DNA from: Candidatus Zixiibacteriota bacterium
GTDB taxonomy: Bacteria > Zixibacteria > MSB-5A5 > DG-27
Direction: 5' to 3'
Assembly: GCA_030605835.1 (NCBI GenBank)
Contig: JAUWHO010000011.1
Coordinates: 1 to 60,332, forward strand
DNA: 60,332 bases
Shown here: positions 26,983 to 49,680 of the stretch, piece by piece
How positions within the stretch are numbered: the stretch's first letter is position 1
Layout: the number at the start of each line of letters is the position of its first letter
Made by a program: the position numbers and the translations under genes
The notes under the pieces: model-generated
What the model was told of the DNA's origin: nothing
Database searches by the model: none
The model's input: the letters and a program-made list of their open reading frames with translations, nothing else

Positions 26983-27057
26983 CGAAGTAGTCTTCTGACT
27001 GTCTTTCTAGTTCCTTTTCCTTATCCCGATCCGTCCGGAAAGAGACTGCTTGTCAGC

Positions 27058-28536: not shown

Positions 28537-28598
28537 AATGGCGTATTCTCCTGCTTTATTTTCTCAACACCGATATTTCCAGATTCAGATGTTACCTA

Positions 28599-30524
28599 TT
28601 ATAAAAACCTCAGAAGGATGAACACCACTAATCCTAAGAAGATCACAAAGGCGTAATTCTGCAGCTGTCCGGTCTGAATTCTCCTCAGGCCCCCTCCGAA
28701 GGCACGAATGGTGTAACCCAAACCGTTGACGGCGCCGTCGACCACATAGGTGTCGAACCTCTCCTGGATCCAAGACAGAAAGACCGTGAAGTCCCCAAAG
28801 AAGTTCACCAGCCAGTCGATCACTCCCAGGTCAAACTTGTATAGCTTCTCCGTCAGGCGATAGGTCGGCTCGATGATTGTAGCCATATACAGCTCATCAA
28901 AGTAATACTTGTTGAACAAGACCCTGTATATCCGCTTGAATCTCTCCGCCATCTTAACCGGCGAGATGGAGCCTTTGTAATACATCAGGTATGCTAGATA
29001 GATTCCCGAGAGAGCCACGATGGTCGAGATTACCATCAGTATGTAGTTGGGCGCAACGTGGTGGGGATGTTCAAAGAAGACGAAGGAGCCGTATCCGTGC
29101 TTTAACCAGGGTATCCCCACCCAACCCACAGTTATCGATAAGAATGCGAGTATGACCAACGGGATTGTCATGTTCTTCGGCGACTCCCGGGCGTGGTCAT
29201 ACTTTTCCTGATCTCGAGGTTTGCCGGTGAAGACCATGAAGCACAGCCGAAACATGTAGAAGGCGGTCATGAAGGCGGCCAAGACCGCTACCACCAGCAG
29301 AATGTAATGTCCACCCTCCCAGGCCACCGCAAAGATCTCATCCTTGCTCCAGAAGCCGGAGAGGGGGAAGATTCCAGCGATGGAGAAAGAGGCTATGAAA
29401 AAAGTCGCCGCCGTGGTTTTCATCTTCCGGCCCAACCCTCCCATCTCCTGAATGTCGTTGGTGTGGACGGCGTGGATGACGGAACCGGCGCCCAGAAACA
29501 GAAGCGCCTTGAAGCAGGCATGGGTCATCAGGTGAAAAGTCCCAGCGGTGTAACCGCCCATACCTAAAGCCAGAATCATGTAACCCAACTGTGATATGGT
29601 GGAATAAGCCAATACTCTCTTGATATCGTTCTGAACCAGGCCGATGGAGGCCGCCATGAGAGCAGTAAAGGCCCCGATTATGGCCACCACCATCGCCATC
29701 GTATGGGAGGTTATAACAAGTGGCATGAGGCGCGCCGTCAGGTATACTCCGGCGGCGACCATGGTGGCAGCGTGAATCAACGCCGAGACTGGTGTCGGAC
29801 CCTCCATAGCATCTGGCAACCACACGTGCAACGGAAACTGCGCCGACTTTCCGATGGCACCGCAGAACATGAGAAGTCCGGCCGCAGTTATTGTCCCCAG
29901 GGCAATCTCGTGATGATGCACCTTGTCGAAAATCTCCGCCATGTTGAGGGTGCCGGCGGCGAAGAACATCACCAGAAGACCAATCAGGAACCCGAAGTCG
30001 CCGATCTTGGTGGTTATAAACGCCTTCTTGCCGGCGTCGGAGGCGATCTTTTTCTCGAACCAGAAACCGATCAGAAGGTAGGAGGTCAGCCCCACCAGCT
30101 CCCAGAAGATAAACATCGTGAAGAAACTGCCGGCCACCACCAGGCCCAACATCGAGAAGGCGAAGAGCGACATATAGGCATAATAGCGAGCGAAACGCGG
30201 GTCTCCATGCATGTAGCCGAGAGAGTAAATCTGGATTAAGGAGGCCACCAGCGACACCATCACCACCATCACCGCCGTCAGGGGGTCGATATACATCACC
30301 ATCGGGAGCTTGAAGGACTCCATGAATATCCAGTTGATAGCGAATTCCTGGGGCTGCGGATTCCCTAAGACCTCAGCCAAGACGGCAACGGAGAGCGCCA
30401 GTGAGCCTAATATGGCCGCAATGGAGGTGTAAGAGGAGGCCTTGTTGCTCCGGATCAAGAAGAAAACGATCAGGACGAATGAAAGAAGCGGCAAGGCCGG
30501 TATCAGCCAGCTATACGGAAGCAT
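28599..30524 (-). CDS. nuoL: NADH-quinone oxidoreductase subunit L
   Basis: Largest antiporter-like subunit of complex I. The 641-residue protein contains FTMFIFWELVGLTSYLLIGFW, KSAQFPLHVWLPDAMEGPTPVSALIHAATMVAAGVY (the L-type DAMEGPTPVSALIHAAT motif) and IKRVLAYSTISQLGYMILALG, and has the long C-terminal extension (about 500-641) with the lateral helix expected in NuoL. Normal length. Between it and nuoK upstream lie 214 bases occupied largely by 7-base repeats, unusual for the inside of this operon. Confidence 0.97.
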   Translation of the reverse strand: MLPYSWLIPALPLLSFVLIVFFLIRSNKASSYTSIAAILGSLALSVAVLAEVLGNPQPQEFAINWIFMESFKLPMVMYIDPLTAVMVVMVSLVASLIQIYSLGYMHGDPRFARYYAYMSLFAFSMLGLVVAGSFFTMFIFWELVGLTSYLLIGFWFEKKIASDAGKKAFITTKIGDFGFLIGLLVMFFAAGTLNMAEIFDKVHHHEIALGTITAAGLLMFCGAIGKSAQFPLHVWLPDAMEGPTPVSALIHAATMVAAGVYLTARLMPLVITSHTMAMVVAIIGAFTALMAASIGLVQNDIKRVLAYSTISQLGYMILALGMGGYTAGTFHLMTHACFKALLFLGAGSVIHAVHTNDIQEMGGLGRKMKTTAATFFIASFSIAGIFPLSGFWSKDEIFAVAWEGGHYILLVVAVLAAFMTAFYMFRLCFMVFTGKPRDQEKYDHARESPKNMTIPLVILAFLSITVGWVGIPWLKHGYGSFVFFEHPHHVAPNYILMVISTIVALSGIYLAYLMYYKGSISPVKMAERFKRIYRVLFNKYYFDELYMATIIEPTYRLTEKLYKFDLGVIDWLVNFFGDFTVFLSWIQERFDTYVVDGAVNGLGYTIRAFGGGLRRIQTGQLQNYAFVIFLGLVVFILLRFL

Positions 30525-30573
30525 CTTTGTTTCTCTTTTCTACCATGGGAGAGGACGCTGAGCTACGCCGACA

Positions 30574-30744
30574 GGTTCACTGTTCGTGGTTCATGGTTCA
30601 CGGTTCACAGTCACCGATTGGCGGTCATAACTTTCCCTATCTACTTCCTACTACTTACTGTCTACTGTTTCCTGTTCCCTATTCCCTGTTTCCTATTCCC
30701 TGTTTCCTGTTCCCTGTCCCCTGTCTCCTGTTTCCTATCTACCA
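30574..30744. repeat. two degenerate 7-base tandem arrays inside the nuo operon
   Basis: Array one (30574-30608): GGTTCAC, TGTTCGT, GGTTCAT, GGTTCAC, GGTTCAC. Array two (30661-30744): twelve heptamers in perfect phase with consensus TTYCCTR, from TCTACTG through repeated TTTCCTG/TTCCCTG to TCTACCA, running into the nuoK stop codon (30739-30741). The region between is looser but similar in composition. Insertion-like growth by slippage is plausible; the arrays separate nuoK from nuoL. Confidence 0.88.
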
Positions 30745-31044
30745 TTTCATGAAGTTGATGTTGTCAACTTCTATTCCCTTATAGTTCCTGTATATCAAGA
30801 GCACAATTGCCAGACCGACAGCGGCCTCGGCGGCGGCGATGGTGATCACGAAAATCGAAAAGATCTGCCCGATGAACTCGTTCGGGGTGATAAACTTCGA
30901 GAAGGCCACGAAATTGATGTTGGCGGCATTGAACATCAGCTCTATCGACATCAAAACCCCGACCGCATTCCTTCTGGTCAAAAGACCATACATCCCTATC
31001 ACGAAAAGGATTGCGCTTAGTATAAGATAGTGATACAGAGTCAC
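30739..31044 (-). CDS. nuoK: NADH-quinone oxidoreductase subunit K
   Basis: Small membrane subunit of complex I (101 residues, three helices). GVLMSIELMFNAANINFVAF has the conserved Glu in helix 2 and AAAEAAVGLAIVLLIYRN the conserved Glu in helix 3, both needed for proton transfer. The start is a GTG one base after the nuoJ stop. The last codons (MKW-stop) abut the 7-base repeat array. Confidence 0.97.
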   Translation of the reverse strand: MTLYHYLILSAILFVIGMYGLLTRRNAVGVLMSIELMFNAANINFVAFSKFITPNEFIGQIFSIFVITIAAAEAAVGLAIVLLIYRNYKGIEVDNINFMKW

Positions 31045-31045
31045 C

Positions 31046-31531
31046 CTAATCTCCCCTGCTTATCACGATGGCACCGACCAGCGCCACCAGCAAAACCACA
31101 GACACGACCTCGAAAGGCAAAACATATACGGTCATTAAAGCTCGCCCCAGCTCCGTCGCCGAGGGGCTCACTCCCGAGGAACTTGCGACCTCCCAGGTGG
31201 TCTTTGAGAGAGCCAAAAGCGTCAGAACTAGGAGCGATGAAATGATGAAAAGCGCCGCTATCGGCTGATCGTTCACCTGCCGGATGGTCTTGCCGGTCAA
31301 CTGATGAGTCAGCATCACCGCGAAAATCATAAGGATGGTCACCGCCCCCACATATATCAGAACCTGCACCGCGGCGATGAACTCCGCCTCCAGAAGAATG
31401 TATATTCCGGCAATGCTGAACATACACAAGACTAAAAAGAGTGCGCAGTGGAAAATGTTCCTTAAGGTGACTACCATCAAGGCTGAGCCGAGGATCAAGA
31501 CTGCCAATATGTAGAAGGCTAAGTCAAACAT
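31046..31531 (-). CDS. nuoJ: NADH-quinone oxidoreductase subunit J
   Basis: Membrane subunit of complex I (161 residues, five helices). NIFHCALFLVLCMFSIAGIYILLEAEFIAAVQVLIYVGAVTILMIFAVML is the family hallmark, split here over helices 2 and 3 (the YVGAV pi-bulge region). A loop with WEVASSSG and ATELGRALMTVYVLPFE precedes the last helix. It sits tightly between nuoI and nuoK. Confidence 0.96.
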   Translation of the reverse strand: MFDLAFYILAVLILGSALMVVTLRNIFHCALFLVLCMFSIAGIYILLEAEFIAAVQVLIYVGAVTILMIFAVMLTHQLTGKTIRQVNDQPIAALFIISSLLVLTLLALSKTTWEVASSSGVSPSATELGRALMTVYVLPFEVVSVVLLVALVGAIVISRGD

Positions 31532-31534
31532 GGA

Positions 31535-32128
31535 TTAGGCCTCGGGCTTATCCTCCCCTGGTGATTCCTCTGGACTCTCCTCGGGCTTTGGAGATGCTGG
31601 TTCTTCGGGCTTGGGTGAAGTTGGATCTGCCTTCGGAGCAGCCTTGGCCTTCGGCAGCGGTTTCTTTTTCTTCTCGTAGGGAACGTCTCGACCCAGTTCC
31701 TGCAGAAAATCCCTATCGTAAAGAAGCGTCTTCTGGTCATACACCGAGAACTCGTATTTGCCGGTTAGTTTGATGGCGTCGAAATTGCAGGCTTCCTCGC
31801 AGAGCCCGCAGAAGGCGCAGGTGGTGTTATCGATCTCGAACTTCACCGGGTATCTCTTCTTCGTCTCGGGATCCGGCTCCTCAGACCTCTCCAGATCGAT
31901 GGCGTAGACCGGACAGATCCGAGCACACACCATGCACGCGGTACAGTTCAGCTTGCCGGTCTCCGGGTCTGAGAGCAGAACCACCACTCCCCTAGAGCGC
32001 TCGAACATCGGCATCCGCTCATCCGGATACTGCAGCGTGATGGCCTTGTGCCCCAGATGCTTGAAGACCGTCACAAGCCCCAGAACGAGGTTATAAACTC
32101 CCGACCAAACCTGTCTTGCTGCTCTCAT
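31535..32128 (-). CDS. nuoI: NADH-quinone oxidoreductase subunit I with extended acidic tail
   Basis: Peripheral-arm subunit carrying two [4Fe-4S] clusters (N6a/N6b). CTACMVCARICP (about residues 58-69) and CAFCGLCEEACN (about 99-110) supply the eight cysteines. The ferredoxin-like core ends near residue 150; beyond it lies a low-complexity tail of about 45 residues rich in Lys/Pro/Ala then Glu/Pro/Ser (KKKKPLPKAKAAPK, then PKPEEPASPKPEESPEE). Such a tail is not part of the usual 150-180 residue NuoI. Its start overlaps the nuoH stop by four bases (ATGA). Confidence 0.95.
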   Translation of the reverse strand: MRAARQVWSGVYNLVLGLVTVFKHLGHKAITLQYPDERMPMFERSRGVVVLLSDPETGKLNCTACMVCARICPVYAIDLERSEEPDPETKKRYPVKFEIDNTTCAFCGLCEEACNFDAIKLTGKYEFSVYDQKTLLYDRDFLQELGRDVPYEKKKKPLPKAKAAPKADPTSPKPEEPASPKPEESPEESPGEDKPEA

Positions 32129-33168
32129 TCGAACAGATAGATCAAAAAGCCAGTTACAATTATGTTCAAAAAGGCCAAAGGTAACAGGAACTTCCAGGCG
32201 AAGGCCATCAGTTGATCAACCCGCAGACGTGGATAAGTCCATCTGAACCACATCAGGATGAAGACCAAAAACAAGCTCTTGCCCAAAAACCAGACCCAAC
32301 TGGGGATGAACGATAAAAACTCGAAGGGAGGATTCCAGCCTCCCAAGAACAGCGTGGCAGCGATGGCGCAGACCGTGAACATATTGATGAACTCCGCTAA
32401 GAAAAACATCGCGAATTTCATCCCGGAATACTCGATGTTGTAACCTGCCACCAGCTCCTGCTCCGCCTCCGGGATGTCGAACGGGGTGCGGTTTACCTCC
32501 GCAGTTGCCGCCGTTACGTAAAGGAGAAACCCCAACGGCTGCCGCCAGATATACCAGTGGAGAAAACTCCCACCCTGTCCTTGCACGATTGTCACCATCG
32601 ACAAGGATTGCGCTAGCATCACCGCTCCCAAAAGGGACAGGCTGAGCGGCACCTCGTAAGAAATAATCTGAGCCGCCGACCTCATCCCTCCCAGAAGCGA
32701 ATATTTGTTGTTGGAGGCCCACCCCGCCATAAGCAGGCTTATCACCGTGAAGGTGGTGATTGCCACTATGTACAGTATACCTATATTCAGGTCTCGAACG
32801 ATCAGCCCTTTTCCGAATGGCATACATATATAAGCCAAAAAGCAGGTCACGAAGCATATCACCGGCGCCCAGAAGAAGACTTTCTTATCAGCGGTGAGAG
32901 GAACGATGTCCTCCTTTTGAAGAAGTTTTAAGGCATCAGCTATGGTCTGGAGCACGCCGTGAGGCCCGGTCCTCATCGGACCTATGCGCACCTGGAAATC
33001 GGCAGAGAGCTTCCTCTCCCACCAAACCAAAAAGAGCGCCAGCACCATCAGAAAACCGATCACCACCCCGGCGACTGCTATTATGGAGACAATCTGAAGC
33101 AGCGGCGCCCCCAAGAAAGAGGCTAAAAAGTCACCAACGGCGCTGAATATTCCCTCGAGTTCAAACAT
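32125..33168 (-). CDS. nuoH: NADH-quinone oxidoreductase subunit H
   Basis: Quinone-site membrane subunit of complex I (347 residues, eight helices). WWERKLSADFQVRIGPMRTGPHGVLQ contains the ERK and RxGP motifs of the quinone channel; EVNRTPFDIPEAEQELVAGYNIEYSGMKFAMFFLAEF is the conserved acidic loop (split over two segments), and LRVDQLMAFAWKFLLPLA the last signature. It follows nuoD by 15 bases and overlaps nuoI by four. Confidence 0.97.
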   Translation of the reverse strand: MFELEGIFSAVGDFLASFLGAPLLQIVSIIAVAGVVIGFLMVLALFLVWWERKLSADFQVRIGPMRTGPHGVLQTIADALKLLQKEDIVPLTADKKVFFWAPVICFVTCFLAYICMPFGKGLIVRDLNIGILYIVAITTFTVISLLMAGWASNNKYSLLGGMRSAAQIISYEVPLSLSLLGAVMLAQSLSMVTIVQGQGGSFLHWYIWRQPLGFLLYVTAATAEVNRTPFDIPEAEQELVAGYNIEYSGMKFAMFFLAEFINMFTVCAIAATLFLGGWNPPFEFLSFIPSWVWFLGKSLFLVFILMWFRWTYPRLRVDQLMAFAWKFLLPLAFLNIIVTGFLIYLFE

Positions 33169-33183
33169 CTGCCGCCAAGAAAG

Positions 33184-34329
33184 CTACCTGTCCACCTCCG
33201 GCAAGATTATGTCTAAAGACCCGAATATCGCCACGATGTCCGCTATTTTCCAACCTCTGGCCATCACCGGCAATGCCTGCAGATTGCAGAAGGAGGCGGT
33301 CCTGATTTTCACCCGATAGGGTTTGGTGGAACCATCGGAGACGATGAAATAAGCCATCTCTCCCCTGGGAGCCTCGATGCGAGCGAAAGCTTCCCCCTGG
33401 GGGGGACGGAACCGAGCCGGGACTTTAGCCTTGATCCCCCCCTCCGGCAGACCCTCCAGGGCCTGCTCGACTATTCTGGCCGATTGCCTCATCTCCTCAA
33501 TGCGGACCTTATAGCGGTCCCAGGTGTCACCATTCTCTCCGGTGGGTATGTCGAAATCGAACTTTTCATAGGCGGAGTAAGGTTCGTCCTTGCGTATGTC
33601 CCATTTGAGACCGCTGCCACGCAGAGGTGGCCCGGACACAGAGTAGTTTATAGCAGTGGGTAAATCCAGAAGACCTATCCCCTTAGTCCGCCCCAAAAAG
33701 ATCGGGTTCTCGGTCAGGATGGCCTCGTATTCGTCCACCCGGGGGTAGAGATAGCTGCAGAACTTCTTTGTCTCGGAGACGAAATCCTTGGGAACGTCCT
33801 TTGAGACTCCGCCGATGCGCATATAGTTATAGGTCAACCTCTGACCGCAGGTCATTTCGAAAAGGTCGACAATCCGCTCTCTCTCCCTGAAGGCATAGAG
33901 AAACGGTGTGACCGCGCCCAAATCGATGGCGAAGCTCGCCAAAAAAACCAGATGGCTGGCGATGCGGTTGAGCTCCGCCATTATTACCCGAAGATATTCG
34001 GCCCTCTCCGGGACTTCGATGCCGGCAAGTTTCTCGACCGCAACACACCAGGCGTGATTGGCGTTCATGGAGGAGACATAGTCGATCCTGTCGGTGTAAA
34101 TCATGAACTGGTGATAGGTGCGGTTCTCGGCGATCTTCTCGATGGAGCGATGAAGGAAACCGATATCAGGGACTACCTTTTTAATCACCTCTCCGTCCAT
34201 GGTGAGTATGAGGCGGCAAACCCCGTGGGTGGAGGGGTGCTGTGGTCCCATGTTGACCACGAACTCTTCCGTCTCGAGGTTCCTGTCGCCGGTCAGGGGT
34301 TCTGGTCTGTCTGGGGAATCAACCATCAT
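33184..34329 (-). CDS. nuoD: NADH-quinone oxidoreductase subunit D
   Basis: 49-kDa-type subunit forming the quinone-reduction pocket (381 residues). NMGPQHPSTHGVCRL near residue 26 is the beta1-beta2 loop with the catalytic His; NHAWCVAVEKLAGIEVPERAEYLRV, TCGQRLTYNYMRIGGV and the C-terminal SLDIILPEVDR are diagnostic. It starts at ATG 34329 (a second ATG follows) with GGAGAAAT upstream, touching the nuoC stop. NuoC and NuoD are separate genes here, not fused. Confidence 0.97.
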   Translation of the reverse strand: MMVDSPDRPEPLTGDRNLETEEFVVNMGPQHPSTHGVCRLILTMDGEVIKKVVPDIGFLHRSIEKIAENRTYHQFMIYTDRIDYVSSMNANHAWCVAVEKLAGIEVPERAEYLRVIMAELNRIASHLVFLASFAIDLGAVTPFLYAFRERERIVDLFEMTCGQRLTYNYMRIGGVSKDVPKDFVSETKKFCSYLYPRVDEYEAILTENPIFLGRTKGIGLLDLPTAINYSVSGPPLRGSGLKWDIRKDEPYSAYEKFDFDIPTGENGDTWDRYKVRIEEMRQSARIVEQALEGLPEGGIKAKVPARFRPPQGEAFARIEAPRGEMAYFIVSDGSTKPYRVKIRTASFCNLQALPVMARGWKIADIVAIFGSLDIILPEVDR

Positions 34330-34818
34330 CTATTTCTCCTGGCCCGTCTCCGGCATCCGAATGAAATCCTTCCCCTCCCAATCCCTTCTCATTGGATACC
34401 CTTCGTCCCACTCCTCTATCAAAAGGAGCGGACGGGGGTCCGGATGGTCTTTGAACTTTATCCCGAAGAGCTCCGCGGTCTCCCGCTCAAACCAGTCGGC
34501 CGCCACCCAGAACTTGGAGACCGAAATCACCTCGGGGTTGTCCCGAGGCATAATCACTCTCAAGTTCAAATGATGTCTCTTGGCAAAGGAAAAGAGACAA
34601 TAGACGACTCCGATCTCGTTTGTCTCGGGATAGTCAATCCCGCCCAGGCAGGGAAGATTGTCGAAGTTGAGTTCGGGATCGGAAACCAGAGTTGTGCATA
34701 CCTCTTCTAAGTGCTCCGGCTTGACCTTGAAGGCGGGAATGCCGGTCACCGCGGGTAGCTCTTCAACCTTTTCAGCGAAAGTTGCCTTGATCTTGGAGGT
34801 CAGTTCCTCAGGTGTCAT
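34330..34818 (-). CDS. nuoC: NADH-quinone oxidoreductase subunit C
   Basis: 30-kDa-type peripheral subunit (162 residues). The signature ERETAELFGIKFKDHPDPRPLLL near residue 110 and EGYPMRRDW at the end identify it. It lies directly before nuoD (stop and start adjacent) and 77 bases after nuoB; that spacer has no gene. The ATG start (MTPEELTSKIK) has ACCTGAGG nearby. Confidence 0.95.
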   Translation of the reverse strand: MTPEELTSKIKATFAEKVEELPAVTGIPAFKVKPEHLEEVCTTLVSDPELNFDNLPCLGGIDYPETNEIGVVYCLFSFAKRHHLNLRVIMPRDNPEVISVSKFWVAADWFERETAELFGIKFKDHPDPRPLLLIEEWDEGYPMRRDWEGKDFIRMPETGQEK

Positions 34819-34895
34819 TGGCTAAATGGGGGTGCTTTAATCCAGTTTGCTACGATTATGCTGCTCTTCGGGTGATTATATCGTCTTAATAAGGA

Positions 34896-35435
34896 TTACT
34901 TCGGTTCGGGAATGAACTTCTCGGTCTTTGACCAGTCGCTCACCTTTTGCTTCTTGATCTTTTGCTGGAGCTTCAGGCAACCCTCCAGGATCGACTCCGG
35001 GCGAGGCGGGCAACCGGGGACATAGACATCGACCGGTATGACCAGATCAACCCCCCGCAGAACGCTGTAACAATCGTAATAGAAAGGTCCACCCCTGATA
35101 GCGCATCCCCCCATGGCGATGACGTATTTCGGCTCCGACATCTGCTCGTATAAGATTTTCACCCTCTTGGCCATCTTGTTGGTAATGGTGCCGGCAACGA
35201 TCATCAGGTCTGCCTGTCTCGGGGAGGCTCTGAATATCATCCCGAAGCGGTCATAGTCGTACCGCGAAGCCCCGGTACACATCAGACCCTCGATGGCACA
35301 GCAGGCAGTCCCGAAAAGGAGATACCACAAGGAGGAGGCTCTCGACCAGTTGAGCACCGCATCTAAAGAGGTAGTGATCAGCCCCCCGCCGGGTATCTTT
35401 TCCAAGTATACCGGAACCTTCTGGACTACACCCAT
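34896..35435 (-). CDS. nuoB: NADH-quinone oxidoreductase subunit B
   Basis: PSST-type subunit that holds cluster N2 and passes electrons to quinone. The 179-residue protein contains [14 protein letters not shown] (the tandem Cys pair and third region), [20 protein letters not shown], and [10 protein letters not shown] with the last ligand; MGGC supplies the other. The start was placed at ATG 35435, whose bases overlap the nuoA stop (ATGGGTGTAG) and follow GGAGGAAGGGAG, instead of an ATG 7 codons earlier inside nuoA. The C-terminal tail is basic. Confidence 0.96.
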
Positions 35436-35782
35436 TTCAAGGCTCCCTTCCTCCAAGCGTAAGCTAGGCCGAAGACTAAAATCATAATGAAGATGAACAT
35501 CTCCACGAAGGCAAAAAGCCCCAGGCTCCTGTAAGCCGCCGCCCAGGGGAAAAGGAAAACGAGCTCGACATCAAAGATGACGAATATGAGGGCATAGATG
35601 TAATAGCTGACGTTATACTGCACCCAGGCGCTTCCCACCGCTGTCTCTCCGCACTCGTAACTGCGATTCTTGATGGGATTAGGCCTGGAGGGCCTGAGCA
35701 ACCTCGCGAAAAAGAAGGTGATCAAAACGAAAGCCACCCCGAAAATGAGAAACAGACCAACGTAAGCGTAATCAGAGGGCAT
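35426..35782 (-). CDS. nuoA: NADH-quinone oxidoreductase subunit A
   Basis: First gene of the operon; a 118-residue, three-helix membrane subunit. [43 protein letters not shown] is the family hallmark with the conserved Cys-Gly loop and the acidic FDVE stretch (quoted in full only by key residues: YECGE and [11 protein letters not shown]). It overlaps nuoB by ten bases. Upstream are an AT-rich promoter region and a 600-base stretch without a gene. Confidence 0.96.
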
Positions 35783-40259: not shown

Positions 40260-40655
40260 TCAATCTCTCACCGGCACACACTTATAGCCGTACGCGTGCA
40301 CTCCTGCTTTTCCGTCCGACTGGATCTTGCGGAACTCGATTTTCACCTTCATGCCGATCTTCAATTCCTCGATTTGGGCATCCGCAATCTGGCACATCAT
40401 CTTTGCACCGTCGTCCAATTTGACAATCCCGACCGGATATGGCGCCTCGTCGGTGAAGGCCGAGGGAGCCACCCTGATTACCGTGAAGCTCTCCACCGTG
40501 CCGGTCTCTGCCAGCTTGACCGGCTCTAACTCTACACACTTTCCTTCAGGGCAGACCAACCGTGGAGGGAAGTATATCTCTCCGGTCTGGGGACACCTGT
40601 TGGCCTCTAATCTGTATCTCTGCGGAATCTCTCTCCAGATTCTTGCCGGAAACAT
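40260..40655 (-). CDS. DUF35 zinc-ribbon/OB-fold protein of the thiolase-HMGS complex
   Basis: A 131-residue protein. Cys21, Cys35 and Cys40 (RCPQTGEIYFPPRLVCPEGKC region) form a rubredoxin-like zinc ribbon, possibly with one ligand altered; the rest is the OB-fold with GTVESFTVIRVAPSAF and PYPVGIVKLDDGAKMMCQI. In archaea DUF35 proteins hold acetoacetyl-CoA thiolase and HMG-CoA synthase together in a channelling complex. Here it is directly downstream of the thiolase (stop and start adjacent), which supports the same role. It is the last gene of the operon. Confidence 0.9.
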   Translation of the reverse strand: MFPARIWREIPQRYRLEANRCPQTGEIYFPPRLVCPEGKCVELEPVKLAETGTVESFTVIRVAPSAFTDEAPYPVGIVKLDDGAKMMCQIADAQIEELKIGMKVKIEFRKIQSDGKAGVHAYGYKCVPVRD

Positions 40656-41813
40656 CTACATCACCTCCAATATATGAACCACTGCGGAGCCGCCTGATCC
40701 ACCCATGTTTTGAGTCAATCCAACTTTGGGGTTTTTCAACTGCCTCTCCCCTGCCTCCCCACGAAGCTGTTTGACCACCTCAGCTATCTGCCCAACGCCG
40801 GTGGCTCCCACCGGATGGCCTTTTGACTTGAGACCTCCAGAAGTGTTGATCGGCTTCTCGCCGTCCAATGCGGTCTTGCCCTCCAAGGCCGCGTGTCCAC
40901 CTTTGCCCTTTTCAAAAAAGCCCAAATCCTCGGTGACCATGATTTCCGCGATGGTGAAACAATCGTGTACTTCGGCAAAGTCGATGTCTTTGGGGCTCTT
41001 TCCAGCCATCTCGTAAGCTCGCTTGGAAGCCTCCACGGTAGCATTCAAGGTGGTCAAGGATTTCCTGGAGTGAAGCGCAATACGATCGGTGGCGTTGCCA
41101 ACTCCGAGAATCTTCACCAGAGGATTCTTGGAAATCTCTTTGGCTTTGTCAACTGAAGCTAAAATGGCACAGGCAGCTCCATCGGTTATCGGGGAGCAGT
41201 CCATCAAAGTCAGTGGGTCGGCAACCATAACGGCTTTAGCCACACCCTCCAGGGTAGTTTTGGACTGAAACTGGGCTAAGGGGTTTTTGCTGCCGTTGTC
41301 GTGGTTTTTGACCGCAACTGCGGAGAGCATATCCCTGGTGGTGCCGAACTCGTGCATGTGTCTCTTTGCCATCAGGGCGTAAAGCCCGGGGAAAGTAGCG
41401 CCGTGGAAGACCTCATATTCCTGGTCGGCGGCGGTGGCCAGAGCGTAGGTAGCACCATCGCCGGAGACGTCGGTCATCTTCTCCACTCCTCCGACGAGGA
41501 CAACGTCACTCATTCCGGAGGCGACCTCTATGAAACCACATCTCACCGCTAGACCTCCGGAGGCGCAGGCGGACTCAACTCTGGTGGAGGGAATCGGAAC
41601 CTTTCCGAGATAGTCAGCTAAGAGTGAGGCCAGATGTTCTTGGCCGACGAACAGCCCACTGGTCATACAGCCGACATACATCGAATCGATTTTGTCCACA
41701 CCAGCGTCTTTAATGGCCAGAAGAGCCGACTCCACGAAGATGTCCCGAATCGATTTACCCCACAGCTCTCCCCACTTGTTCATCCCCACGCCAATTACAC
41801 AAACCTCTCTCAT
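40656..41813 (-). CDS. acetoacetyl-CoA thiolase (archaeal type)
   Basis: Condenses two acetyl-CoA to acetoacetyl-CoA. The 385-residue thiolase has the acylated Cys83 in [23 protein letters not shown] with the catalytic His region, and [17 protein letters not shown]; the C-terminal Cys of classic thiolases is replaced by [11 protein letters not shown], as in the SCP2/archaeal-type subfamily. Sandwiched between HMG-CoA synthase (14 bases upstream) and DUF35, in the same order as the archaeal gene cluster. By itself it could be a generic SCP2-type thiolase; context decides. Confidence 0.92.
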
Positions 41814-41827
41814 ATTTTCAGTCTCCT

Positions 41828-42877
41828 CTATTCAGCAGTTAAGATTTTGCCGCGGTATTTGGCGTAGGTGCCGTAGTCGATGTATCTCTTATTGTTGTCG
41901 AGCATGTACCGGGTGTTCAGTGCCAGATCCCTGACCTCGTTGATTCTCTCGGTGACGGTGAAGATAAAACCATCCGAGCCGGCACCGGAACCGTATGAGA
42001 CCAACATGATCTTATCGCCCGGCTTGGAAATATCTAAGGTAGAGGTCAATCCCATCGGGGAGGAACCGGAGTAAGTGTTACCCAAAAGAGGGCAGAGCAG
42101 ACCAGGCTCGATCTGTTCCGGTGTGAAGCCCAGCATCTTCCCCACCCTTTGGGGGAATTTCCCATTGGGCTGGTGGAAGATCACGTAGTCAAAATCTTTC
42201 GGCTCCGTCCCGGCTTTCTTCATTAATCCCTCGGCGCAGCCGGTGATGTGCTTGAAATAGGCCGGCTGGCCGGTGAAACGACCCCCGTGCCGCGGATAGA
42301 ATTCTTGCTCCCGCCTCCAGAAATCTGGGGTGTCGGTCATGAAGGAGAAGGTTTCGTTACACTCTGCCAAGACCTTATCGTTGCCGAAGATGAAGGAAGC
42401 CGCGCCGGCGGCGGCGGAGTATTCTAAGGCATCGCCGGGAGCACCCTGAGAGGTGTCGGCGCCGATTCCCAGACCGTATTCTATCAATGCAGCCTTGACC
42501 AGACCGTAAACCACAAACATCCCCTCTGTCCCGGCCTTACAGGCGAACTCAAAATCGGCGCAGTGAATATCGGGGGTGGCCCCGATCGCTTCGGCAACGG
42601 TGGTGCCGGAAGGTTTCACCGCGTAAGGGTGTGATTCGGAGCCGATGTAGATTGCTCCGATCTTCTTGGGGTCGACATGCGGCCCTCGTTTGAGGGCGTT
42701 CTTGGTCGCCTCCACCGACATCGTGATGGTGTCCTGATCCGGCTGGGGAACCGATTTCTCCTGAAGCCCCAGACCGCGTTTGTATGAGGGGGCATCCGCT
42801 CCCCAGACCTTGGCGATCTCCTCCACCTTGATCCGGCACCTGGGGATGTAAGCCCCGTATCCGACAATTCCAACCAT
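41828..42877 (-). CDS. hydroxymethylglutaryl-CoA synthase (archaeal type)
   Basis: Adds acetyl-CoA to acetoacetyl-CoA to give HMG-CoA, the first committed precursor of the mevalonate pathway. The 349-residue protein begins [20 protein letters not shown]; Cys113 in [12 protein letters not shown] is the acyl-carrying residue, [12 protein letters not shown] and [14 protein letters not shown] carry the Glu and His regions, and YSGSSPMGL closes the thiolase fold. Length and motifs match the archaeal TIGR00748 type rather than the longer bacterial/eukaryotic form. The start was set at ATG 42877 (after GTGAGG); the open frame extends 69 codons upstream but through the promoter. First gene of the three-gene operon. 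Confidence 0.93.
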
Positions 42878-42997
42878 CAAAACCTCACTCTTTATTGGTT
42901 CATCCTTCTTGACTTCTTCGAATGGTGGATCAGACAACAACTCCCACCCAATAACCCACCCAGTGAAGCGAAAAAGGTTCGCTCCAAAAGTAGGCAA

Positions 42998-43026
42998 TAT
43001 ATAGCCAAAACCGCACTTATTGTCAA
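42998..43026 (-). promoter_or_regulatory. promoter of the HMGS-thiolase-DUF35 operon
   Basis: On the minus strand TTGACA (43021-43026), 17-base spacer, TATATA (42998-43003). Predicted start near 42991, leaving a 5' leader of about 114 bases in which no known riboswitch was recognised. Confidence 0.75.
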
Positions 43027-43069
43027 GGTGATCAGAGCTGCGAGCCGGAGAGACATTCTGAGAATAAGC

Positions 43070-43100
43070 TTGACACGCAGACAAATCTGAGCAATAATAA
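43070..43100 (+). promoter_or_regulatory. candidate promoter of the nuclease-like gene
   Basis: TTGACA (43070-43075) followed by AATAAT (43093-43098, 17-base spacer) or the overlapping TAATAA (43095-43100). It is divergent from the HMGS promoter, 44 bases away. Confidence 0.6.
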
Positions 43101-44548: not shown

Positions 44549-45460
44549 ATGGTGCAGTCAATGAAAAAGAGAGTCACTGCAATAATCCTTTCCTCTTTTT
44601 TCCTGCTTAATCTTTATCCTCTCTGCTTAATAAGTTTTTGTTATGCCGGCGAGAAGATACTCACCTTGAACGGCGACATGTTTTCGCCTCTTTCAGTCGG
44701 AGCGTACAGTTCGACTCAGCTTTCTGGTCATAGCTGCAAGCTTTTCGGGATATTACAGTCCGCCTATGTAATTTACGATTTCAGAGTGCCGAAATATCTG
44801 GACAGCTTCGCCGCCACCGCCAGAGTGAAAAACCCCCGAGCGAAAAAGATAGACGTTTACCTATACAACTATGGGAGCAAACAGGAACAGCAAATGCTCT
44901 CCAAGCCGGACTTAGACAGCAAATGGATCCGCTGGGAGTCCGTTCTCATAGACGGCGACTGGAGAAGCAGAAGCCCGGAGTTCATCTGGGCGAGGTCAAA
45001 AACCGGCGCTTTAGACTTTCTTGGCACTTACGGAGTCGTCAGGCTTATGTTTTACGCCGATGGCGGGCTCCCTCCGGACGAGGACGAGATCTACTTCATT
45101 GACAAGGTCAGCTTGATCTGGTCTGAGGACATCAACATCGATTCTTTGCTTCAGGCTCTTTCATCCGACAAGGTCTGGCGCGAAGGCGATTTCCTTGTGA
45201 CGGAGGGGATTGGCATTCGACCTCAGGGAGTTCCCCCGGGACAAGCTCGAGCCATGGCAATGAGAGCCGCCACCGTCGGCGCCCAGAGGAATTTTGCTGA
45301 GGTGTTGGGTGAAATCGAGACGGTCAAAAGCGGCTCTCAAGCAAAGAGCATCGCCGCTACCACCGTCCGCGGTGCCCGCATCCGCGAGACGAAATACTTG
45401 GATGACGGTTCCGTCAAAGTGATTGTGGAACTGCCCCTCAGCGCCCTGAAGCAAAAATAA
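44549..45460 (+). CDS. exported protein with C-terminal LPP20-like domain
   Basis: A 303-residue exported protein; the signal peptide is MKKRVTAIILSSFFLLNL followed by a second hydrophobic stretch and CYAGEK. The middle (about 40-200) is a beta-rich domain of unknown type with YDFRVPKYLDSFAATARV and the jelly-roll-like RLMFYADGG. The end (about 220-303) reads GIGIRPQGVPPGQARAMAMRAATVGAQR, then VRGARIRETKYLDDGSVKVIVELPL, the pattern of LPP20-type envelope domains in which an Ala-rich helix follows a GxG strand. Start at 44549 or four codons later. Function unknown; envelope location. Confidence 0.7.
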   Translation: MVQSMKKRVTAIILSSFFLLNLYPLCLISFCYAGEKILTLNGDMFSPLSVGAYSSTQLSGHSCKLFGILQSAYVIYDFRVPKYLDSFAATARVKNPRAKKIDVYLYNYGSKQEQQMLSKPDLDSKWIRWESVLIDGDWRSRSPEFIWARSKTGALDFLGTYGVVRLMFYADGGLPPDEDEIYFIDKVSLIWSEDINIDSLLQALSSDKVWREGDFLVTEGIGIRPQGVPPGQARAMAMRAATVGAQRNFAEVLGEIETVKSGSQAKSIAATTVRGARIRETKYLDDGSVKVIVELPLSALKQK

Positions 45461-45518: not shown

Positions 45519-46691
45519 CTATCTTCCGAAAATATGTCTTAGTTCTAAAAGCAGTCTGGGGTCCCTTGACAATGCCGTGAAGAATACCCTCTTTATTGTC
45601 CTCTTCTCCGGTGGGAGATCCGACAAGAGGTGGGCAACGCGGTTCAAGCTATCATCTGACAACTTTATCACCCCCTCCTTTATTATGTAGTAAGCGCGAT
45701 GAATCTTGCCCACCCTCTGATGCCAGAGTTTGTGGTACTCCTGCAATCTTTCCTTGGAGGTATCTCCCTGCTTAATGGCAGAGGCAGCCACCTCTCCGGC
45801 CAATTTCCCCGCTATCATGCCGTTTAAGATACCGGCCCCGGTCATGGGATTGACCTGACGGGCGGCGTCGCCGACTAACATAATCCCATCTCCGACGATC
45901 TCCTTCAAAGTAACAGAGACCGGAATGCCACCCGCAACCATGGAGATAATCCTGGCGTTCGGGAATTTTTCGTGGAGGAAATCGTCCAAAAAACTCCTGG
46001 CGGTTTTCCCCTTGAGACGATCAGCGGCAAGCCCGACGCCAACAGACCCCACCCCCTCCCCCTTGGGGAAGCACCACAGGTAACCTCCAGGGGCAACCTC
46101 TTCTCCAAAATACAATTCGCTAAAGTTCTGGTCGACGCTCTCATCGTAAATCTGGTATTGCAGTCCGGATTCGATATTGTGAAGCGAAAGCGCAGTTTTG
46201 AAACCAGCCCAGCGCCCCACCCGCGATTCCACCCCGTCGGCGGCAATGATGATTCTCGATGTGACTTTTTTCTCAGTCCCGTTCTGAGAGATTTTTGTGC
46301 GCCAGCGGTGATCGCCAGCTCGCTCAATCGAAGTCACCTGAGAATTCAACCGGATTTCAGTTCCAGCCTCTCCCGCAAGCTCCGCCAACTTTCGGTCGAA
46401 TATCTTTCGTTCCAAGATCAATCCACTTCCCTCGACGGTAAGTTCAACCGCGGTTCCATCCGGAGAGATTAAACGGGCGCCTTTCAACCTTCTAGAGATC
46501 AAAGAAGGGTCAGGCTTCAAGAATTCTGCCAGACTCGTCTCCCCTACACCCTCAGCGCACCTGGTCGGAACCCCAAACTCCCTTCTGCGCTCCACCAAGA
46601 GAACCTCGGCACCTCCGATGCAGGCGAATCGAGCCGCGGTAGTCCCCGCCGGGCCACCTCCTATGACCACAATTTCAAAATCGGTCTTCAT
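45519..46691 (-). CDS. geranylgeranyl reductase family flavoprotein
   Basis: FAD enzyme of the geranylgeranyl reductase family, which saturates isoprenoid chains in archaeal lipids, chlorophyll side chains or quinone tails. The 390-residue protein starts MKTDFEIVVIGGGPAGTTAARFA (dinucleotide-binding fold), has TRCAEGVGETSL (family motif with Cys), FSELYFGEEVAPGGYLWCFPKGEG (PGGYxWxFP motif) and DGIMLVGDAARQVNPMTGAGIL (second FAD motif). The ATG at 46691 lies inside the end of the ferredoxin gene (17-base overlap), so translation is coupled. Substrate could be an isoprenoid lipid, a polyprenol or a menaquinone chain. Confidence 0.9.
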   Translation of the reverse strand: MKTDFEIVVIGGGPAGTTAARFACIGGAEVLLVERRREFGVPTRCAEGVGETSLAEFLKPDPSLISRRLKGARLISPDGTAVELTVEGSGLILERKIFDRKLAELAGEAGTEIRLNSQVTSIERAGDHRWRTKISQNGTEKKVTSRIIIAADGVESRVGRWAGFKTALSLHNIESGLQYQIYDESVDQNFSELYFGEEVAPGGYLWCFPKGEGVGSVGVGLAADRLKGKTARSFLDDFLHEKFPNARIISMVAGGIPVSVTLKEIVGDGIMLVGDAARQVNPMTGAGILNGMIAGKLAGEVAASAIKQGDTSKERLQEYHKLWHQRVGKIHRAYYIIKEGVIKLSDDSLNRVAHLLSDLPPEKRTIKRVFFTALSRDPRLLLELRHIFGR

Positions 46692-46863
46692 CGGAAACCT
46701 CCCGCATAGCCCCCAGCGGGCAGGCAATCACGCAGTTCTCGCAGTCGGTGCATTTCTCCAGGTCAATCCTGATATCTCTCTCGGCCAGAAAAATTGCATC
46801 CGGCTGGCAAACGGCCACACAGGTACCACAAAAGTCGCAGAGCTCTCTATCGACTGCAATCAT
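46675..46863 (-). CDS. 2[4Fe-4S] ferredoxin coupled to geranylgeranyl reductase
   Basis: A 62-residue bacterial-type ferredoxin. Cys9, 12, 15, 19 (CDFCGTCVAVCQP) and Cys38, 41, 44, 48 (CTDCENCVIACPL) ligate two [4Fe-4S] clusters. Its end overlaps the reductase start by 17 bases, so the two are made together and the ferredoxin is the likely electron donor to the reductase. The promoter region is shared with the divergent Wzi-like gene. Confidence 0.95.
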   Translation of the reverse strand: MIAVDRELCDFCGTCVAVCQPDAIFLAERDIRIDLEKCTDCENCVIACPLGAMREVSDEDRF

Positions 46864-46943: not shown

Positions 46944-48623
46944 ATGTCGATAAACAAATCTCGGCAATTATCTTTTGCCCTTATCATAATCATCTTGACA
47001 CTCGTTTTCTCCTCTCGTACTTACGGACAGAAAACCGTGACCTTACCTCTCGACCACTGGGCTTACAAGATTGTCGAAAGGTTTCAAACAAAAGGATACT
47101 TGACAAACATCGCTGACCTTACCAAGCCTTACACTCGAGAGGAGTTCGTCAATTTCATCCTGAAGGCAGATTCTAGCATAACCGAAACCTCAAACCGAAT
47201 CGACCACAAGCTCCTGCAGAAACTAAAAGCGGAGTTCAACGAGGACTTGCAGGACCGGGGAATGTGGGAAACTGACCTCAAGGAGCAATCGCATTTGGTG
47301 AAATGGTACGGGGAGGATTACCGCTTCTTTTTTGACCCAGTTGTGAGGTTAGAGGGTTTTTCCAATTGGGGTGACAACTACGGGGAAGCTGAGAAAAACT
47401 ATCGCCACACCGTGGGTTTAATTGCCAGAGGTTATATTAGAAACTCCCTCGATTTCTATCTTTACACTCACGACAATCGTTTGGGGGGAGACCACGTTTA
47501 CACCGATCGCTCCGAGATCGACGATAAGGGCGTGGGATATGTTAGTTTCGAGGACGGCGACGTCGACTACGATAAAACGGATGCCTCGGTCTCCTTCAAA
47601 ACGAAATGGTTCGATTTCACCCTGGGGCGAAACTCCCTACAGTGGGGTCCGGGCTCCTCGGGTCAACTCTTACTCTCAGATCAAAGTCCCGCTTTCGACA
47701 TGATAAGGCTCACGACCACCGTCGGCAGAGTCAAGTTCACCTACCTCGCCGGGGTTCTGCAAACCGACCTGGTTGACTCCACCTTGAGCTACACTCCGGT
47801 CTCCGGGAGATTCCGAGGCATCAAAAAAGAGAAAAGGATTGCCGCCCATCGCCTGGAATTTCGACCGCACCGCAATCTTGACCTTTGCCTCTCGGAGGTG
47901 GTGATCTACGGGGAGCGAGATTGGGAACTGGGCTATCTAATCCCGGTGGTTTTCCTGTGGTCCGAACAGCACAACTTACAAGACCGTGACAATCTCCTCA
48001 TGGGTTTCGACTTCCGCTGGAATTTCCGCCCGGGATGGAGAGTCTATGGAGAGATCGTGGTTGACGACATCTTCATCAGCAAGCTAGCCTCTGATTGGTA
48101 CGGCAACAAGTGGGGAGCTACTTTGGGACTCTCCGCGGTTGACCCTTCAGGTTTGACGGCGACGGACTTTGCCGCAGAGTACACCCGTTTAGAACCCTAT
48201 CTTTACACCCACTTCTTCCCCGTCAACGTTTACAAGAATTACCACTCCCCTCTGGGACACTGGCTCCAACCCAATTCCGACCTGATATACTTAAAGGGTG
48301 GTTGGTGGATTTCGCCATATCTGAGAGATGAGATTCAACTCTCCTACATGCGTCACGGCGCCAATCCTCCGGGCGGAAACGTCGGCGGTGATATCGACCT
48401 CTCTCACCGGACCGGTGACCCCACAGAAAAGAAGTTCTTAGATGGCATTCGCGAGAAGAGACTCACTCTTGAGGACCACATAACCTACGAACCTTATCCG
48501 GAGCTCTTCGTTCACCTCCGGGGGGGAGTCTCCAGCTCGAAGAACATCGTCAAGCCGGATGGCAACCGCGGAGACTTCACCGATTATAGGATCGCAATCG
48601 GCCTCACTTACAGGTATTATTGA
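46944..48623 (+). CDS. Wzi-like capsule-assembly outer-membrane barrel
   Basis: A 559-residue exported barrel. Residues 1-33 are a signal peptide (MSINKSRQLSFALIIIIL, ending SSRTYGQ). A helical plug-like region follows (LPLDHWAYKIVERFQTKGYL, SLH-like), then barrel strands; the segment FTLGRNSLQWGPGSSGQLLLSDQ with AFDMIRL is characteristic of the Wzi/Caps_assemb family, where it lines the barrel interior. It ends in IAIGLTYRYY, a barrel C-terminus. Wzi anchors capsular or surface polysaccharide. A radical SAM gene begins 5 bases after its stop. Confidence 0.85.
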   Translation: MSINKSRQLSFALIIIILTLVFSSRTYGQKTVTLPLDHWAYKIVERFQTKGYLTNIADLTKPYTREEFVNFILKADSSITETSNRIDHKLLQKLKAEFNEDLQDRGMWETDLKEQSHLVKWYGEDYRFFFDPVVRLEGFSNWGDNYGEAEKNYRHTVGLIARGYIRNSLDFYLYTHDNRLGGDHVYTDRSEIDDKGVGYVSFEDGDVDYDKTDASVSFKTKWFDFTLGRNSLQWGPGSSGQLLLSDQSPAFDMIRLTTTVGRVKFTYLAGVLQTDLVDSTLSYTPVSGRFRGIKKEKRIAAHRLEFRPHRNLDLCLSEVVIYGERDWELGYLIPVVFLWSEQHNLQDRDNLLMGFDFRWNFRPGWRVYGEIVVDDIFISKLASDWYGNKWGATLGLSAVDPSGLTATDFAAEYTRLEPYLYTHFFPVNVYKNYHSPLGHWLQPNSDLIYLKGGWWISPYLRDEIQLSYMRHGANPPGGNVGGDIDLSHRTGDPTEKKFLDGIREKRLTLEDHITYEPYPELFVHLRGGVSSSKNIVKPDGNRGDFTDYRIAIGLTYRYY

Positions 48624-48627
48624 AACC

Positions 48628-49680
48628 GTGAAATCCAACTCCTTCAGAATGAGGTGGCATCAGTTTAAGGGAAACCTTCCCCGGTTCTCTCAGTTGCTCA
48701 ACCTTTTCAAGGTCGCCGGTGGATATTGTTTGACTTATCTCACCAAGAGGGATTTCCACTGGGGATTGCCTGTTGTCCTGATGGTGGAACCCTCCAGTCT
48801 GTGCAACCTGAGATGCCCTCTCTGCCCGGCCGGGACGAAAGAACTCAAAAGAACCGAGGCCTTCCTATCAATCGATTATTTCAGAGATGTTTTGGAAGAT
48901 GTCGGGCACCAGATCAAGCTCCTGCTCTTGTGGAATCAGGGGGAGCCTTTTCTCCATAAGGACCTTTTGGAGATGATACGCCTCGCCAAGCACAGAGAAA
49001 TCTACGTCAAAACCAGCACCAATGGACATTTCATAAACACAGAGGAGCAAGCCGGGGAGATAATCGAGTCTGGGTTGGACGAGATAATTGTCTCTATCGA
49101 TGGTGCTGACAGTGAGACTTACCGAAAATATCGTCTAGGAGGGGACTTTGAGAGGGTCACCAGAGGAGTCCAACTTCTGGCCTCTCAAAAAAGAGAACGG
49201 AAATCTCTGACACCGATTATCGACCTGCAGATGCTTCTGACTAAAGACACCGAAGGACAAGTAGAGGAGATGAAAGGATTCACTCGCAATTTGGGCGCGA
49301 ATATCCTCTCCCTGAAAACCCTGCAGGTTACGAATCTGAAAGAGGCAGAAGAATTTCTCCCGGAGGATGCTTCTAAGTGGCGATACAAGAAGACCGAGGA
49401 GGGACTGAAGACCAAGTCGAAAAATCACAAAGGCTGTCGACGACTGTACTACAGTCTGGTCATAAACTCTGACGGAAAGGTCTCTCCCTGCTGCTTCGAC
49501 AAATTCGGCAAATACAGCTTCGGGGACCTTGACCAAAACGGAAACCTTCCCGGAATCTGGAGAGGAGGAAAATTCAAAAGCTTCAGAACCGCCTTATTGG
49601 ACAACTCCCACGCTTTTGACATCTGCAGAAATTGCTCCGAGGGTCTGGAAAATCTGTATTATCGAAGGTTTTACCTATAG
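48628..49680 (+). CDS. radical SAM enzyme with SPASM-type C-terminal cluster domain
   Basis: A 350-residue enzyme. CNLRCPLCP near residue 59 carries the CxxxCxxC motif for the SAM-binding [4Fe-4S] cluster, after LMVEPSSL; LLLWNQGEPFLHKDLLEMI and KTSTNGHFI are the next strands of the barrel. The C-terminal part has GCRRLYYSLVINSDGKVSPCCFDKFGKYSFGDL and ICRNCSEG, a SPASM/twitch-like auxiliary cluster site (key Cys: GC, PCC, CRNC). Such enzymes modify peptides, sugars or lipids; the substrate cannot be read. The start is uncertain: GTG 48628 (5 bases after the barrel gene's stop) or ATG 48649. A palindromic repeat follows. Confidence 0.88.
   Translation: MKSNSFRMRWHQFKGNLPRFSQLLNLFKVAGGYCLTYLTKRDFHWGLPVVLMVEPSSLCNLRCPLCPAGTKELKRTEAFLSIDYFRDVLEDVGHQIKLLLLWNQGEPFLHKDLLEMIRLAKHREIYVKTSTNGHFINTEEQAGEIIESGLDEIIVSIDGADSETYRKYRLGGDFERVTRGVQLLASQKRERKSLTPIIDLQMLLTKDTEGQVEEMKGFTRNLGANILSLKTLQVTNLKEAEEFLPEDASKWRYKKTEEGLKTKSKNHKGCRRLYYSLVINSDGKVSPCCFDKFGKYSFGDLDQNGNLPGIWRGGKFKSFRTALLDNSHAFDICRNCSEGLENLYYRRFYL

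What the first reader, a model, noticed from the sequence alone, without database searches (positions are those of the whole stretch)
45519..46863. Ferredoxin translationally coupled to a geranylgeranyl reductase, near the mevalonate cluster
Seen: a 2[4Fe-4S] ferredoxin gene overlaps the reductase start by 17 bases. Known: archaeal geranylgeranyl reductases can take electrons from ferredoxin, and FCB-group genomes have been proposed to encode archaeal-like ether-lipid genes. Inference: the pair saturates isoprenoid chains, possibly of membrane lipids.
Basis: partly seen in the sequence, partly recalled or inferred. Interest (0 to 1): 0.65.

Follow-up and report, generated by a model that had tools for sequence, protein, structure and literature searches.

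The report
Ferredoxin-paired lipid-saturating enzyme in Zixibacteria
This bacterium carries an archaeal-type enzyme that removes double bonds from isoprenoid chains, encoded together with its probable electron donor, in a genome that also has the two enzymes that build archaeal-style ether lipids, so it may make saturated archaeal-like membrane lipids as already proposed for related bacteria.

Summary
On the minus strand, a 62-aa 2[4Fe-4S] ferredoxin (46675-46863) overlaps the start of a 390-aa geranylgeranyl reductase (GGR, 45519-46691) by 17 bases. The reductase belongs with archaeal membrane-lipid GGRs, not MenJ or BchP/ChlP. The genome, a 96%-complete Zixibacteria-class MAG, encodes GGGP synthase and a DGGGP-synthase-like UbiA elsewhere. 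A ferredoxin lies directly upstream of the GGR in 27 of 27 checkable Zixibacteria loci, and in Ignavibacteria, Chloroflexi, Methanosarcinales and a Thermoplasmatota relative. The closest worked-out system is Methanosarcina acetivorans MA_1484/MA_1485. The reading 'ferredoxin-driven saturation of archaeal-type ether-lipid chains' is well supported, though unproven biochemically.

Two corrections: the neighbouring 'mevalonate cluster' is only HMG-CoA synthase, thiolase and a DUF35 protein (HMG-CoA reductase not found; MEP enzyme IspG present), and archaeal G1P dehydrogenase was not found in any of 133 class genomes.

Two points go beyond what I found in print: about half of near-complete class genomes with both ether-bond synthases lack a GGR, and the window's GGR is of a different lineage from most Zixibacteria GGRs (AU p = 9e-5). 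FCB archaeal-lipid genes were already reported (PMC7852524, PMC6431249). Menaquinone remains a possible substrate.

The parts
46675..46863 (-). 2[4Fe-4S] ferredoxin, 62 aa (Cys 9,12,15,19 and 38,41,44,48), the probable electron donor of the reductase
45519..46691 (-). Geranylgeranyl reductase, 390 aa, FAD enzyme of the archaeal membrane-lipid (DGGGP/archaeol) type: GxGxxG near the N-terminus, conserved Cys45 (RCAEG), PGGYLWCFP at 201-209, LVGDAA FAD motif
46675..46691 (-). 17-base overlap of ferredoxin end and reductase start (translational coupling inferred)
46698..46703 (-). GGGAGG, Shine-Dalgarno-like site of the reductase, inside the ferredoxin codons
   Evidence: read directly from the sequence

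Best explanation
The pair is a ferredoxin-dependent geranylgeranyl reductase module. Reduced ferredoxin (46675-46863) passes low-potential electrons to the FAD of the reductase (45519-46691). The reductase hydrogenates the C=C bonds of geranylgeranyl chains of archaeal-type glycerol ether lipids, which are made from MEP-derived GGPP by a GGGP synthase and a DGGGP synthase encoded elsewhere in the genome. Shown here: gene anatomy, family and clade of the reductase, conserved pairing with a ferredoxin, presence of GGGP synthase and a DGGGP-synthase-like gene. Inferred: electron flow, translational coupling, and the substrate.
For: TIGR02032 GG-red-SF 219 bits (cut-off 159); best-scoring equivalog model is Thermoplasma digeranylgeranylglycerophospholipid reductase (274 bits), against 143 for BchP and 84 for MenJ. 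Best solved structure is 3oz2, T. acidophilum DGGGPL reductase, full length, with Cys45 and PxxYxWxFP kept. The tree places it with Ignavibacteria, Chloroflexi, Methanosarcinales and Thermoplasmata GGRs (98/92). Ferredoxin is upstream in 27/27 class loci and in Ignavibacteria, Chloroflexi, Methanolobus, Methanolliviera and a Thermoplasmatota relative; ferredoxin and GGR distances correlate, r = 0.80. GGGP synthase: TIGR01769 204 bits, cut-off 162. DGGGP synthase-like UbiA: best structure 6m31 DGGGPS. In M. acetivorans the neighbouring ferredoxin MA_1485 is required to activate GGR MA_1484 (PMC8941075, PMC9385802).
Against: No archaeal G1P dehydrogenase found, so the glycerol backbone is unclear. 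The DGGGPS call rests on similarity below the NCBIfam equivalog cut-offs. GGR, GGGPS and DGGGPS lie on three separate contigs. GGR presence is not associated with the two synthases across the class (p = 0.41). MenA-like and MenG-like genes are present, so menaquinone is an available alternative substrate.
Confidence: 0.65

Rival explanations
1. The pair saturates the side chain of menaquinone, like A. fulgidus AF_0648 or mycobacterial MenJ, and has nothing to do with ether lipids.
For: The genome has a MenA homologue over its cut-off (TIGR00751, 127 bits vs 102) and a MenG/UbiE-like gene beside a polyprenyl synthase. GGR-family enzymes are promiscuous (PMC9385802), and AF_0648 produced partly saturated menaquinone in E. 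coli (PMC10821996).
Against: MenJ model scores only 84 bits against 274 for the DGGGPL reductase model. The clade is that of Methanosarcinales and Thermoplasmata GGRs, and Methanosarcina uses methanophenazine rather than menaquinone (background knowledge). The T. acidophilum paralogue likened to AF_0648 (Ta0983) has no ferredoxin in its locus (PMC10821996). AF_0648 itself was not available for the tree.
Confidence: 0.2
2. The reductase acts on free GGPP, geranylgeraniol, polyprenol or another isoprenoid, giving phytyl-type precursors for unknown lipids.
For: Archaeal GGRs reduce GGPP (PMC10821996). About half of near-complete class genomes with both ether-bond synthases lack a GGR, and 6 of 37 near-complete GGR-bearing genomes lack one or both synthases.
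Against: No chlorophyll or tocopherol context was seen; ferredoxin pairing and clade match the membrane-lipid GGRs. The gaps could be missed genes in draft genomes.
Confidence: 0.1
3. GGGPS/DGGGPS/GGR homologues serve breakdown or recycling of archaeal lipids scavenged from the environment.
For: Reverse reaction proposed for FCB bacteria that lack G1PDH (PMC6431249); G1PDH not found in the class.
Against: A ferredoxin-fed reductase is expected to be a biosynthetic saturase (inference); Cloacimonetes homologues of the two synthases made unsaturated archaeol lipids in E. coli (PMC7852524).
Confidence: 0.03
4. The ferredoxin is an accidental neighbour and the reductase uses NAD(P)H or another donor.
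For: T. acidophilum GGR works with NAD(P)H in vitro (PMC10821996).
Against: Directly upstream in 27/27 class loci and across phyla; overlapping in 24 of 34 pairs.
Confidence: 0.02

Closest known systems
Methanosarcina acetivorans GGR MA_1484 with ferredoxin MA_1485 (PMC8941075, PMC9385802, PMC10821996)
   Same: GGR next to a small ferredoxin; the ferredoxin is needed for full GGR activity in E. coli; a Methanolobus relative of the same clade as the window's GGR shows ferredoxin-GGR with a 4-base overlap
   Different: Host is a bacterium without archaeal G1PDH, with the MEP pathway; about 39% identity to the Methanolobus GGR
Thermoplasma acidophilum digeranylgeranylglycerophospholipid reductase (3oz2)
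   Same: Full-length similarity with conserved Cys and substrate-cavity motif; a 4Fe-4S protein gene lies in its locus (PMC10821996)
   Different: Archaeal host; far below that model's equivalog cut-off (274 vs 780 bits)
Archaeal-lipid genes of FCB bacteria, Cloacimonetes and others (PMC7852524, PMC6431249)
   Same: GGGPS + DGGGPS + euryarchaeal-like GGR, MEP pathway with HMG-CoA synthase and thiolase, no G1PDH in the Black Sea MAGs
   Different: Here GGGPS and DGGGPS are unlinked; the ferredoxin partner is explicit (the main text of PMC7852524 holds the word ferredoxin only in a reference); GGR is optional and of two lineages across Zixibacteria
Menaquinone-specific prenyl reductase AF_0648 / MenJ
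   Same: Same flavoprotein superfamily
   Different: Far lower model score (MenJ 84 bits); the AF_0648-like paralogue Ta0983 has no ferredoxin in its locus (PMC10821996)

Membership tests
Geranylgeranyl reductase family (TIGR02032) | Model score over curated cut-off | tested here: met
   219 vs 158.8 bits; GGR_cat PF22578 76.7 vs 27
Geranylgeranyl reductase family (TIGR02032) | GxGxxG, conserved Cys, PxxYxWxFP, LxGD motifs | tested here: met
   motif definitions from PMC10821996
Archaeal membrane-lipid GGR (DGGGP/archaeol type) | Groups with archaeal lipid GGRs rather than MenJ/BchP | tested here: met
   model scores and tree; characterised AF_0648 and MA_1484 sequences themselves not in the tree
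Archaeal membrane-lipid GGR (DGGGP/archaeol type) | Equivalog cut-off of NF041160 / NF041080 / NF041385 | tested here: not met
   274 vs 780, 163 vs 580, 89 vs 700 bits; these models are narrow: a Methanolobus GGR also misses them
Archaeal membrane-lipid GGR (DGGGP/archaeol type) | Reduces GGGP/DGGGP-type lipids | not testable with these tools
   needs assay
GGR-ferredoxin pair (MA_1484/MA_1485 type) | 2[4Fe-4S] ferredoxin gene adjacent to GGR, same strand | tested here: met
GGR-ferredoxin pair (MA_1484/MA_1485 type) | Ferredoxin raises GGR activity | not testable with these tools
   needs co-expression
Archaeal-type ether-lipid pathway | GGGP synthase | tested here: met
   TIGR01769 204 vs 161.6 bits
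Archaeal-type ether-lipid pathway | DGGGP synthase (UbiA family) | tested here: inconclusive
   best structure 6m31 DGGGPS, E 5e-39; NF009521 199 vs cut-off 296
Archaeal-type ether-lipid pathway | G1P dehydrogenase | tested here: not met
   only a butanol-dehydrogenase-like Fe-ADH in this genome; NF002022 0/133 class genomes at E<=1e-20
Archaeal-type ether-lipid pathway | CDP-archaeol synthase CarS | not tested
Mevalonate pathway | HMG-CoA reductase | tested here: not met
   PF00368 not found in the genome; MEP IspG present
Menaquinone reductase MenJ | NF045655 cut-off | tested here: not met
   84 vs 700 bits

The most novel reading that the evidence does not exclude
Zixibacteria make saturated archaeol-type lipids without archaeal G1P dehydrogenase, and the saturation step was added as a two-gene ferredoxin-reductase cassette acquired at least twice (one lineage in most families, an archaeal/Ignavibacteria-like one in the window's family and a second family), so members differ in whether their archaeal-like lipids are saturated.
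Probability: 0.35. Interest if true: 0.75.

Novelty: new member of a known kind. Interest (0 to 1): 0.5.

Why it matters
It supplies a conserved candidate electron donor for the saturation step of the archaeal-like lipid pathway proposed in FCB bacteria, one of the few candidate natural cases of mixed archaeal/bacterial membranes. It also makes a testable prediction: Zixibacteria with the cassette should hold saturated archaeol-type lipids, and sister lineages without it unsaturated ones. The absence of archaeal G1P dehydrogenase across the class keeps the question of backbone stereochemistry open and testable.

Tried and rejected
A link to a mevalonate gene cluster was rejected: HMG-CoA reductase not found, IspG present. 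The only Fe-ADH_2 hit as G1P dehydrogenase was rejected: it is a butanol-dehydrogenase-like Fe-ADH. Other UbiA genes as DGGGPS were rejected: they are MenA-like and DPPR-synthase-like. The nearby radical SAM gene (48559-49680) as tetraether synthase was rejected: it is a 373-aa radical SAM/SPASM protein on the other strand, whereas Tes homologues were selected at over 400 aa (PMC8941075). A single-protein scan of genome contigs found nothing; the alignment-based scan worked. Co-occurrence of GGR with both synthases was tested and is not significant.

Full report
WHAT IS THERE. On the minus strand, a 62-aa 2[4Fe-4S] ferredoxin (46675-46863) is followed by a 390-aa FAD-dependent reductase (45519-46691) whose ATG lies 17 bases inside the ferredoxin gene. 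A GGGAGG site 6 nt before the ATG sits in the ferredoxin's last codons, so coupled translation is plausible (inference). Pfam gives GGR_cat and FAD domains, and Fer4 for the ferredoxin.

WHAT THE REDUCTASE IS. It passes the geranylgeranyl reductase subfamily model TIGR02032 (219 vs 158.8 bits). Its best-scoring equivalog model is the Thermoplasma digeranylgeranylglycerophospholipid reductase (274 bits, below that narrow model's cut-off of 780). BchP-ChlP (143) and MenJ (84) score far lower. A Methanolobus GGR with the same kind of ferredoxin neighbour also misses the narrow cut-off (327 vs 780). The best solved structure is 3oz2, full length, with the conserved Cys (Cys45 here) and the PxxYxWxFP cavity motif kept (motif meaning from PMC10821996).

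WHICH ORGANISM. The window is contig 22 of a 2.68-Mb, 96%-complete genome. Genomes of its class carry GGR proteins identical to those on contigs named Zixibacteria SM23_73_2 and Ca. Zixiibacteriota (rows L053/G118 and L052/G109). The host is therefore placed in Zixibacteria at class level (inference from shared class).

ETHER-LIPID GENES. The genome has one GGGP synthase (G000:C31:48431-49222; TIGR01769 204 vs 161.6 bits). It has three UbiA-family genes: one DGGGP-synthase-like (G000:C34:744-1586; best structure DGGGPS 6m31, E 5e-39), one MenA-like and one decaprenyl-phosphate phosphoribosyltransferase-like. It has two polyprenyl synthases. No archaeal G1P dehydrogenase was found: the only Fe-ADH_2 hit is a butanol-dehydrogenase-like protein, and NF002022 gives no hit in 133 class genomes at E<=1e-20. 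HMG-CoA reductase was not found while IspG of the MEP pathway is present, so the HMG-CoA synthase/thiolase/DUF35 trio at 40260-43084 is not a mevalonate pathway. The same combination was reported for Cloacimonetes MAGs (PMC7852524), and PMC6431249 reports GGGPS and DGGGPS in all 12 FCB phyla surveyed, with G1PDH in only two.

CONSERVATION OF THE PAIR. In a survey of 133 class genomes, 55 have a GGR at E<=1e-35. Of 29 relatives' loci fetched, 27 have upstream DNA, and in all 27 a 2[4Fe-4S] ferredoxin lies directly upstream. The same holds for Ignavibacteria, two Chloroflexi, Methanolobus, another Methanosarcinaceae archaeon, Methanolliviera, one Thermoplasmatota archaeon and one Bacteroidetes contig. 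It is not universal: an Edwardsbacteria and a Thermoplasmata GGR of the same two groups showed no ferredoxin by this motif. Of 34 pairs scored for spacing, 24 overlap. More distant GGR paralogues in other archaea and bacteria showed none. Ferredoxin and GGR distances correlate (Mantel r = 0.80, 0 of 2000 permutations). That fits joint inheritance, but shared species history contributes. The known precedent is M. acetivorans, where the neighbouring ferredoxin is required to activate the GGR (PMC8941075, PMC9385802, citing Isobe 2014, which is not held here).

TWO LINEAGES. In the tree the window's GGR and those of two genomes of another family form a clade (100/98) whose sister is Ignavibacteria (100/96), inside a group with Methanosarcinales, Thermoplasmata, Chloroflexi and an Acidobacteria MAG (98/92). 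The other Zixibacteria GGRs lie elsewhere. A single Zixibacteria clade is rejected (AU p = 9.4e-5, log-likelihood 75 lower). This means two lineages; whether by transfer or by old duplication and loss, and in which direction, is not settled. Reference sequences of AF_0648 and MA_1484 were not available for the tree, and the locus sampling was limited by the pattern scan.

OPTIONAL STEP. Among 79 genomes at least 90% complete and at most 5% contaminated, 62 have both GGGPS and a DGGGPS-like gene. Only 31 of these have a GGR. GGR presence is not associated with having both synthases (p = 0.41). Many members would therefore make unsaturated lipids, use another reductase, or not make such lipids at all. 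DGGGPS was called by similarity to the window genome's gene, so some of the weaker hits may be other UbiA proteins.

MECHANISM. Most likely, reduced ferredoxin donates electrons to the reductase's FAD, which hydrogenates geranylgeranyl chains of archaeal-type ether lipids. The main rival is menaquinone side-chain saturation, since MenA-like and MenG-like genes are present. It is disfavoured by model scores, clade and ferredoxin pairing, but not excluded. The review PMC9385802 stresses that GGRs are promiscuous.

NOVELTY. FCB archaeal-lipid genes and GGRs were published in 2019-2020, and GGR-ferredoxin synteny is known in Euryarchaeota (PMC9385802). Literature searches found no report of the conserved ferredoxin-GGR cassette in Zixibacteria, its optional distribution, or its two lineages. 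The library holds only open-licence papers, so this is a limited negative. The finding is graded as a new member of a known kind.

Noticed in passing
window 40260-43084 (-): Archaeal-type HMG-CoA synthase (TIGR00748, 537 vs 353 bits), thiolase and DUF35/OB-fold protein in a row, matching the archaeal thiolase/HMGCS/DUF35 complex (recalled), in a genome where HMG-CoA reductase was not found; what the HMG-CoA is for is unexplained.
   Followed up: partly
window 25561-35456 (-): Complex I genes nuoB,C,D,H,I,J,L,M,N in a row with no nuoE,F,G between them among the listed ORFs (assigned by eye): possibly an 11-subunit complex I that takes electrons from ferredoxin; NuoI has a Pro/Lys/Glu-rich tail.
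   Followed up: no
window 44549-45460 (+): 303-aa protein with signal-like start and no Pfam match, converging on the reductase gene.
   Followed up: partly
L021 6220-8509 (G000:C23): Butanol-dehydrogenase-like iron alcohol dehydrogenase directly before a decaprenyl-phosphate phosphoribosyltransferase-like UbiA gene.
   Followed up: partly
L156 1396-3177 (G000:C25): Polyprenyl synthase directly before a MenG/UbiE-like methyltransferase (by eye), pointing to menaquinone synthesis.
   Followed up: no
window 9096-10964 (+): SelB-like selenocysteine elongation factor (by eye); selenoproteins in the genome were not looked for.
   Followed up: no
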